Assembly (NCBI GenBank): GCA_004322015.1
Contig: SCQT01000132.1
Span: 1-53,124 of the forward strand
Direction: 5' to 3'
Source of the DNA: Chitinophagaceae bacterium
Lineage (GTDB): Bacteria > Bacteroidota > Bacteroidia > Chitinophagales > Chitinophagaceae
DNA length: 53,124 nucleotides
Shown here piece after piece: positions 26,174-26,862 of this stretch. Position 1 is the first letter of the stretch; each line of letters begins with the position of its first letter. The notes beneath the pieces are model-generated. The model did no database searches. It was not told where the DNA came from and saw only the letters and a list, made by a program, of their open reading frames with translations. Made by a program: the position numbers and the translations under genes.

Positions 26174-26256
26174 CGGCCAAAATCTAAGAACAAGACGGAT
26201 ATCAATCCGCCGTGTAAATTAACAAAACTTAAACTTTTTTCTGTAACTATATGGTT

Positions 26257-26264
26257 TAGTTTTG
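26257..26264 (+). promoter_or_regulatory. -7 promoter element (TAGTTTTG) before the small RNA candidate
   Basis: TAGTTTTG fits TAnnTTTG exactly. It is followed within about 110 bases by a strong intrinsic terminator and no coding frame, which marks a short transcript. Only a TTTT run, not TTTG, is found 17-20 bases upstream. Confidence 0.5.
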
Positions 26265-26270
26265 CGTTAT

Positions 26271-26380
26271 TACAAAAAACAGATAATAAAAATTATTCAA
26301 GAATACAAGCCATCAGTCCTTGATGGCTGTCGTAGAGAGGATGGGAGTAGTCCCCCTGTATCCACAGGGGGAATTTTTTT
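26271..26380 (+). ncRNA. Candidate structured small RNA or attenuator leader
   Basis: No known family recognised. Predicted structure: an A/T-rich 5' part, then hairpin GCCATCA (26309-26315), loop GTCCT, TGATGGC (26321-26327). The loop can pair with AGGAT at 26338-26342 as a pseudoknot. GGGA-GTAG-TCCC (26343-26354) can form a small hairpin that competes with the 3' terminator (26351-26372). Length would be about 105-110 nt. It is either a free sRNA or a leader for the gene at 26560, although a further 180 bp separate them. Confidence 0.55.
26351..26380 (+). terminator. Strong intrinsic terminator
   Basis: TCCCCCTGT (26351-26359), loop ATCC, ACAGGGGGA (26364-26372): a perfect 9-bp stem followed by ATTTTTTT. 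The stem is the most GC-rich element in the local AT-rich region. Confidence 0.85.
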
Positions 26381-26559: not shown

Positions 26560-26862
26560 ATGAAAATAGAAGCTATTATAGAAGAACATGCCCACCGTTT
26601 TTTGCAGGATGCAAAGACGGAATATAAAGGTGAGAAAGCGGCGGGCATTATTATACAGAAATATATAAAAGAAGGGAAAATAAGCGATGAAGAAGAAATG
26701 ATATTAAAGACTCAACTGATGGACTCGTTGAAAATTGTGGGTATTGGTGTTCCTTTCGTATTAATACCGGGGGCATCCATACTAATGCCCATACTTATAA
26801 AAGTGGCGGCTAAATACCGTATAGAATTGATGCCATCAGCGTTTATCAATAAGAAGCCGTAA
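26560..26862 (+). CDS. Small conserved-looking protein of unknown function
   Basis: A 100-residue protein without a signal peptide. The N-terminal half is charged and helical (KIEAIIEEHAHRFLQDAKTEYKGEK), followed by DEEEMILKTQLMDSLKIVGIGVPFVLIPGASILMPILIKVA, which contains one membrane-compatible helix. The order 'acidic helix, then GVPFVLIPGAS...PILIK' resembles the LETM1 ribosome-binding region of mitochondrial and Bacteroidota proteins, a weak similarity by eye. It is convergent with carA with a 13-bp gap. Confidence 0.65.
   Translation: MKIEAIIEEHAHRFLQDAKTEYKGEKAAGIIIQKYIKEGKISDEEEMILKTQLMDSLKIVGIGVPFVLIPGASILMPILIKVAAKYRIELMPSAFINKKP

What the first reader, a model, noticed from the sequence alone, without database searches (positions are those of the whole stretch)
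26257..26380. Independent small RNA with pseudoknot and terminator between the aminotransferase and a small gene
An exact TAnnTTTG element (26257-26264), no coding frame, a 7-bp hairpin whose loop GTCCT can pair with AGGAT downstream, a possible GGGA/TCCC hairpin that excludes the terminator, and a 9-bp G+C-rich intrinsic terminator ending at 26380. This is the layout of a regulated sRNA or a ligand-sensing attenuator. I cannot match it to a known riboswitch or sRNA class.
Basis: partly seen in the sequence, partly recalled or inferred. Interest (0 to 1): 0.7.

Follow-up and report, generated by a model that had tools for sequence, protein, structure and literature searches.

The report
Genus-restricted orphan bacterial small RNA
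A roughly 112-nucleotide stretch between two genes is very probably a free-standing small regulatory RNA with its own promoter and terminator, kept almost letter for letter in a distant sister species at a different place in the genome; it is a sound new example of a known kind of thing, with its target still unknown.

Summary
The promoter-to-terminator unit is real. The only other genome held for the genus (G001) has it as one copy. Identity is 60/61 in the promoter block, 15/24 in the 5' leader and 80/81 from hairpin to terminator, although fourfold codon positions of two genes are near saturation (6/24 and 34/112 identical). In G001 it lies after panB and before a convergent reading frame; in the window it lies after an aminotransferase and before a small gene. 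It is therefore an independent gene, not a leader or attenuator of a neighbour. Nothing reaches an Rfam gathering score. Models find no further convincing member in samples of 394 family and 396 order genomes. The proposed pseudoknot is what chance gives (53-55% of shuffles), and the GGGA/UCCC "anti-terminator" is far weaker than the terminator (-4.5 against -16.2 kcal/mol). Best explanation: a trans-acting sRNA whose invariant 22-nt purine-rich linker is the contact site. No target could be identified. New member of a known kind (Bacteroidota intergenic sRNAs such as GibS and Rfp18), not shown to belong to any named family.

The parts
26215..26238 (+). conserved upstream block, about -54 to -31 (TAAATTAACAAAACTTAAACTTTT): possible activator/UP-like site
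   Evidence: identical in G001; the 20-mer within it occurs exactly only at this unit in both genomes; the two other hits in each genome have 3 mismatches, and totals do not exceed the backward control
26257..26264 (+). TAnnTTTG -7 box (TAGTTTTG); predicted +1 near 26269
   Evidence: exact match, identical in G001; box spans -12 to -5 in F. psychrophilum (PMC9723704 passages). No clear -33 TTTG box (by eye)
26269..26380 (+). predicted sRNA, about 112 nt
   Evidence: promoter, conserved core and terminator; transcription not shown
26276..26299 (+). A-rich 5' leader, poorly conserved (15/24)
26308..26328 (+). 8-bp hairpin AGCCATCA-GTCCT-TGATGGCT
   Evidence: -10.8 kcal/mol; invariant in G001
26329..26350 (+). 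invariant, mostly unpaired 22-nt purine-rich linker GTCGTAGAGAGGATGGGAGTAG: proposed contact site (seed)
   Evidence: identical in G001; alone folds only at -0.9 kcal/mol
26351..26380 (+). intrinsic terminator: 9-bp stem 26351-26372, T7 26374-26380
   Evidence: only difference in G001 is loop base 26363

Best explanation
A free-standing, genus-restricted small RNA gene. SHOWN by sequence: a promoter-to-terminator unit under strong purifying selection, one copy in each of the two genus genomes held, at unrelated loci. INFERRED: sigma-A-type transcription from about 26269 to 26380 gives a ~112-nt RNA; the hairpin and terminator protect and present the single-stranded linker GUCGUAGAGAGGAUGGGAGUAG, which acts in trans by pairing with pyrimidine-rich mRNA stretches, changing their translation or stability, and the conserved -54 to -31 block makes its expression conditional. 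That it is a trans-acting sRNA gene I put at about 0.75; mRNA pairing as its mechanism at about 0.5 (the protein-binding rival below overlaps with the first claim).
For: Conservation 60/61 (promoter), 15/24 (leader), 80/81 (hairpin-linker-terminator); leader against core p = 4e-6 by Fisher. Fourfold sites identical 6/24 (small gene) and 34/112 (panB, a poorly aligned N-terminal stretch included), so unselected sites are near saturation; the diverged leader inside the unit argues against recent transfer. Block edges coincide with promoter and T-run, which points to the + strand. Different neighbours: panB is followed by the sRNA in G001 but by tRNA-Cys and a prs-like gene in the window's genome (panB and prs named by eye); R1 finds nothing beside the small gene's homologues. 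One copy each at E <= 0.1. Same plan as validated Bacteroidota intergenic sRNAs (PMC7366714 passages; PMC9723704 section 20).
Against: No transcript data. Only one homologue, so no covariation. Sites complementary to the 13-nt linker core with up to 1 mismatch (6 other sites in the window's genome, 3 in G001; backward control 0 and 1) gave no plausible target: all 6 and 1 of the 3 lie antisense to the long reading frame there, the other two deep inside one. No clear -33 box. The linker could equally bind a protein.
Confidence: 0.72

Rival explanations
1. An sRNA gene that works by binding a protein (a decoy or scaffold) through the G-rich linker (AGGAU, GGGA) rather than by pairing with mRNAs.
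For: Every base from 26300 to 26380 but one is conserved, stems and loops alike, as expected of a protein-bound RNA; no plausible mRNA complement was found.
Against: No repeated motif or array as in known decoy RNAs (recalled); no candidate protein identified or searched for.
Confidence: 0.18
2. A ligand-sensing attenuator or leader of the downstream small gene (26560-26862), switching between GGGA/UCCC and the terminator.
For: It ends in a terminator about 180 nt before a co-directional gene in the window.
Against: In G001 the same RNA is followed by a convergent reading frame; homologues of the small gene in 9 genomes carry no copy in the stretch held around them; alternative hairpin -4.5 against terminator -16.2 kcal/mol.
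Confidence: 0.03
3. Antisense to a tRNA 3' end: the linker resembles the reverse complement of the T-arm and acceptor of a tRNA-Met (CAT anticodon), either as a tRNA-derived relic or as an RNA that pairs with tRNA precursors.
For: 2 of the 28 other R1 loci that I read (L044, L068) are the minus strand of tRNA genes with a hairpin after them; 15/19 match to own tRNA-Met.
Against: 15 of 300 shuffles match as well or better; no place in the two genomes but the unit itself matches the 19-mer within 3 mismatches; tRNA 3' ends are structured and a hairpin after a tRNA gene is routine (recalled).
Confidence: 0.04
4. A mobile or recently transferred DNA segment or chance conservation, not a functional RNA.
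For: Different loci in the two genomes.
Against: Single copy in each genome; leader already differs at 9 of 24 positions while both sides are near-identical; no flanking repeat seen by eye (no repeat search was run).
Confidence: 0.03

Closest known systems
GibS (Bacteroides thetaiotaomicron intergenic sRNA; PMC7366714)
   Same: Intergenic, sequence and promoter conserved within a genus, conserved single-stranded seed, Rho-independent terminator (passages)
   Different: 145 nt with the seed in its 5' part; here ~112 nt with a variable 5' leader and the conserved unpaired stretch between hairpin and terminator; no sequence comparison was made
Rfp18 (Flavobacterium sRNA; PMC9723704)
   Same: Independent structured sRNA conserved across a genus, in a species whose sigma-A -7 consensus is TAnnTTTG (passages; section 20)
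   Different: Rfp18 has predicted targets and a deletion phenotype; its sequence was not compared
Rfam RF02452 ncr1575 (Bacillus sRNA)
   Same: Best-scoring sub-threshold Rfam match on the + strand, hairpin and terminator
   Different: 25 bits against a gathering score of 60; other phylum; not a member

Membership tests
Any Rfam 15 family | score at or above the curated gathering cut-off | tested here: not met
   0 matches in the window and in L002
Riboswitch / transcription attenuator | stands in the leader of the gene it controls, consistently across species | tested here: not met
   convergent frame downstream in G001; none near small-gene homologues
Riboswitch / transcription attenuator | two mutually exclusive folds of comparable stability | tested here: not met
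   -4.5 against -16.2 kcal/mol; forced fold -26.8 against -31.8
H-type pseudoknot RNA | second helix beyond chance or supported by covariation | tested here: not met
   5-bp loop match in 53-55% of shuffles; no varying pair to test
Bacteroidota intergenic sRNA (criteria as in PMC7366714) | Rho-independent terminator | tested here: met
   predicted by scan and fold, and conserved
Bacteroidota intergenic sRNA (criteria as in PMC7366714) | own promoter / TSS | tested here: inconclusive
   TAnnTTTG box and 60/61 conserved block, but no mapped TSS and no clear -33 box
Bacteroidota intergenic sRNA (criteria as in PMC7366714) | transcript of defined length | not testable with these tools
   no RNA-seq at hand
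Trans-acting base-pairing sRNA | conserved target complementarity | tested here: inconclusive
   no shared or plausible target for the 13-nt linker core in G000 and G001; low-power test
tRNA-antisense RNA | complementarity to a tRNA beyond chance | tested here: inconclusive
   15/19 to tRNA-Met; 15 of 300 shuffles reach 15 or more

The most novel reading that the evidence does not exclude
A near-invariant sRNA of a single genus whose linker mimics the complement of a tRNA 3' end (tRNA-Met type) and acts on tRNA maturation or abundance instead of on mRNAs, a mode not described for Bacteroidota as far as I recall (not searched for in the papers).
Probability: 0.04. Interest if true: 0.6.

Novelty: new member of a known kind. 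Interest (0 to 1): 0.33.

Why it matters
I saw no described sRNA of the family Chitinophagaceae, but looked little: one search of the open-licence library for papers holding 'Chitinophagaceae', 'sRNA' and 'terminator' together found none, and a listing for 'Chitinophaga' with riboswitch and RNA-motif terms showed nothing pertinent in its titles. A unit identical at 140 of 142 promoter and core positions, where fourfold codon sites are near saturation, is a strong candidate for an important regulator and gives an exact 22-nt stretch to test. It also shows, in one pair of species, an sRNA gene that has changed neighbours.

Tried and rejected
Rfam at gathering and at relaxed E: nothing. Model R1 over 394 family genomes, own included: 150 of 394 with E <= 0.1, but beyond the two genus members (120.6 and 121.8 bits) the best is 41.4 bits. 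I read the 30 loci returned: 2 are the genus members, 13 belong to a different, mostly lon-associated RNA, 2 are antisense to tRNA genes, 13 are other hairpin/terminator look-alikes; the unfetched lower matches were not read. Model R2 without the terminator (promoter, hairpin, linker): 2 of 394 family genomes and 1 of 396 order genomes, the window's own (an even sample, whether G001 was in it is not shown). Exact 19-mer GAGAGGATGGGAGTAGTCC: one contig in genome contigs, of the same length and match position as G001's C482 and so taken to be the same; none in viral contigs.

Anti-Shine-Dalgarno pairing of the linker: -12.7 kcal/mol, but 113 of 2000 shuffles are as good; not beyond chance. A regulon sharing the -54 block: no sign. 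Small ORF within the RNA (ATG 26323): runs through the terminator without a stop in the window (read); rejected. Adjacent tRNA-Cys at the panB locus of the window's genome: not the tRNA type that the linker resembles, so taken as coincidence.

Full report
What is there. The + strand from 26215 to 26380 holds an exact TAnnTTTG box (26257-26264), an A-rich leader, an 8-bp hairpin with loop GTCCT, a 22-nt purine-rich linker and a 9-bp G+C-rich hairpin followed by seven T. In Flavobacterium psychrophilum the TAnnTTTG box spans -12 to -5 (passages of PMC9723704), which puts +1 near 26269 and gives an RNA of about 112 nt. Taken one by one the motifs are weak: TAnnTTTG occurs 55 times in the window against 54 expected; 88 of 2000 shuffles hold a hairpin of at least 8 bp and 142 of 2000 one of at least 9 bp. 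The segment folds better than 199 of 200 shuffles, but without the terminator 6 of 200 shuffles fold as well.

Conservation. The window's genome (G000) has one other genus member in the held set, G001. An exact core match in the genome collection lies on a contig of the same length and match position, from the MAG Chitinophagaceae bacterium FW021_bin.37, so I take G001 to be that MAG. G001 has one copy at E <= 0.1. Aligned, 26215-26275 is identical at 60 of 61 positions, 26276-26299 at 15 of 24, 26300-26380 at 80 of 81, and the 15 aligned positions after 26380 at 10. The single core difference is in the terminator loop. Leader against core gives p = 4e-6 (Fisher). Between the same genomes, fourfold-degenerate sites are identical at 6 of 24 (small gene) and 34 of 112 (panB), near the level of unrelated sequence; these are the only two genes compared. 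So the promoter and the hairpin-linker-terminator part are held by strong selection, and the diverged leader within the unit speaks against recent transfer. The conserved block starts at the promoter and ends at the T-run, which points to the + strand as the transcribed one.

Location. In the window the unit lies after an aminotransferase gene (Aminotran_1_2) and before a 100-aa gene without Pfam match. In G001 it lies after panB (named by eye), on the same strand, and before a convergent reading frame that the contig end cuts. The window genome's panB is followed by tRNA-Cys (ARAGORN) and a prs-like gene (by eye) instead. G001's small gene sits on another contig without a copy in the 2.7 kb held, and R1 finds none beside eight further homologues (L033-L040). 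The unit is thus independent of its neighbours, which speaks strongly against a leader or attenuator role for them.

Distribution. Nothing in Rfam reaches a gathering score; the best relaxed match, ncr1575, has 25 bits against 60. R1 (hairpin, linker, terminator) over 394 family genomes gives two strong members, both of this genus; 150 of 394 genomes have some match at E <= 0.1, which on the 28 other loci read are other RNAs, tRNA antisense strands and terminators, best 41.4 bits. R2 (promoter, hairpin, linker) finds 2 of 394 family and 1 of 396 order genomes at E <= 0.01. These searches used stricter filters for over 40 genomes, so diverged members may be missed. The exact 19-mer core occurs in one contig of the species-level genome collection, in which the window's own genome may be left out, and in no viral contig.

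Structure claims. Both stems are invariant in the two species, so there is no covariation for or against them. The GTCCT/AGGAT pairing is at chance (5-bp match in 53-55% of 5000 shuffles) and would use every loop base, leaving no connecting nucleotide (geometry recalled). The GGGA/UCCC hairpin (-4.5 kcal/mol) cannot rival the terminator (-16.2); forcing it costs 5 kcal/mol over the whole RNA.

How it likely works. A trans-acting sRNA is the best reading: own promoter, conserved upstream block, protective hairpins, and an invariant unpaired 22-nt linker as contact site. Whether it contacts mRNAs or a protein is open. Sites complementary to the 13-nt linker core (up to one mismatch) number 6 besides the unit in the window's genome and 3 in G001 (backward control 0 and 1). 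All 6 and one of the 3 lie antisense to the long reading frame there, the other two lie more than 1 kb inside one, and the six sense-strand frames compared share no homologue; so no target is proposed. Pairing with the 16S tail (recalled letters) is not beyond chance (113 of 2000 shuffles). The likeness of the linker to the complement of a tRNA-Met 3' end (15/19) is reached or passed by 15 of 300 shuffles, so it stays a lead.

Comparison. By plan it matches intergenic sRNAs of the phylum: GibS (PMC7366714; passages), with genus-level conservation of promoter and seed and an intrinsic terminator, and Rfp18 (PMC9723704; section 20). It is not shown to be a homologue of either; their sequences were not compared. 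It is a new member of a known kind.

Noticed in passing
L043, L045, L046, L048, L049, L050, L051, L052, L054, L057, L059, L062, L069 (loci; cores near locus position 1520): A different conserved RNA element: nearly invariant TTTCATGTTGGTTGTTTTAAGGGTTAAA directly before a G+C-rich terminator, in six genera of the family. In 9 of the 10 loci examined it follows a lon-like gene (C-terminus ...HYVKTMQQVL... or close, recognised by eye; L057 is the exception), in several before a PorQ-like gene (by eye); no Rfam gathering match to it in the seven of these loci scanned. Looks like an unannotated lon 3'UTR-derived or intergenic sRNA family. Not checked whether the window's genome has it.
   Followed up: partly
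L060 and L067, near locus position 1500: Look-alike element CATAAGCAGTTGGTTTTG before a terminator; in both after a gene whose end looks hsp20-like (by eye): possibly a related group of 3'UTR RNAs behind heat-shock genes.
   Followed up: no
L044 and L068: Minus strands of tRNA genes with their following hairpins score 40.3 and 29.7 bits with R1.
   Followed up: yes
window 26560-26862 (+): 100-aa protein without Pfam match, found in 10 of 147 family genomes including the window's own; a patchily distributed family of unknown function.
   Followed up: no
L128:3811-4098 (G001 contig C482): Reading frame made of short repeats (FRVVSEWFQ-like), probably a minisatellite between genes.
   Followed up: no
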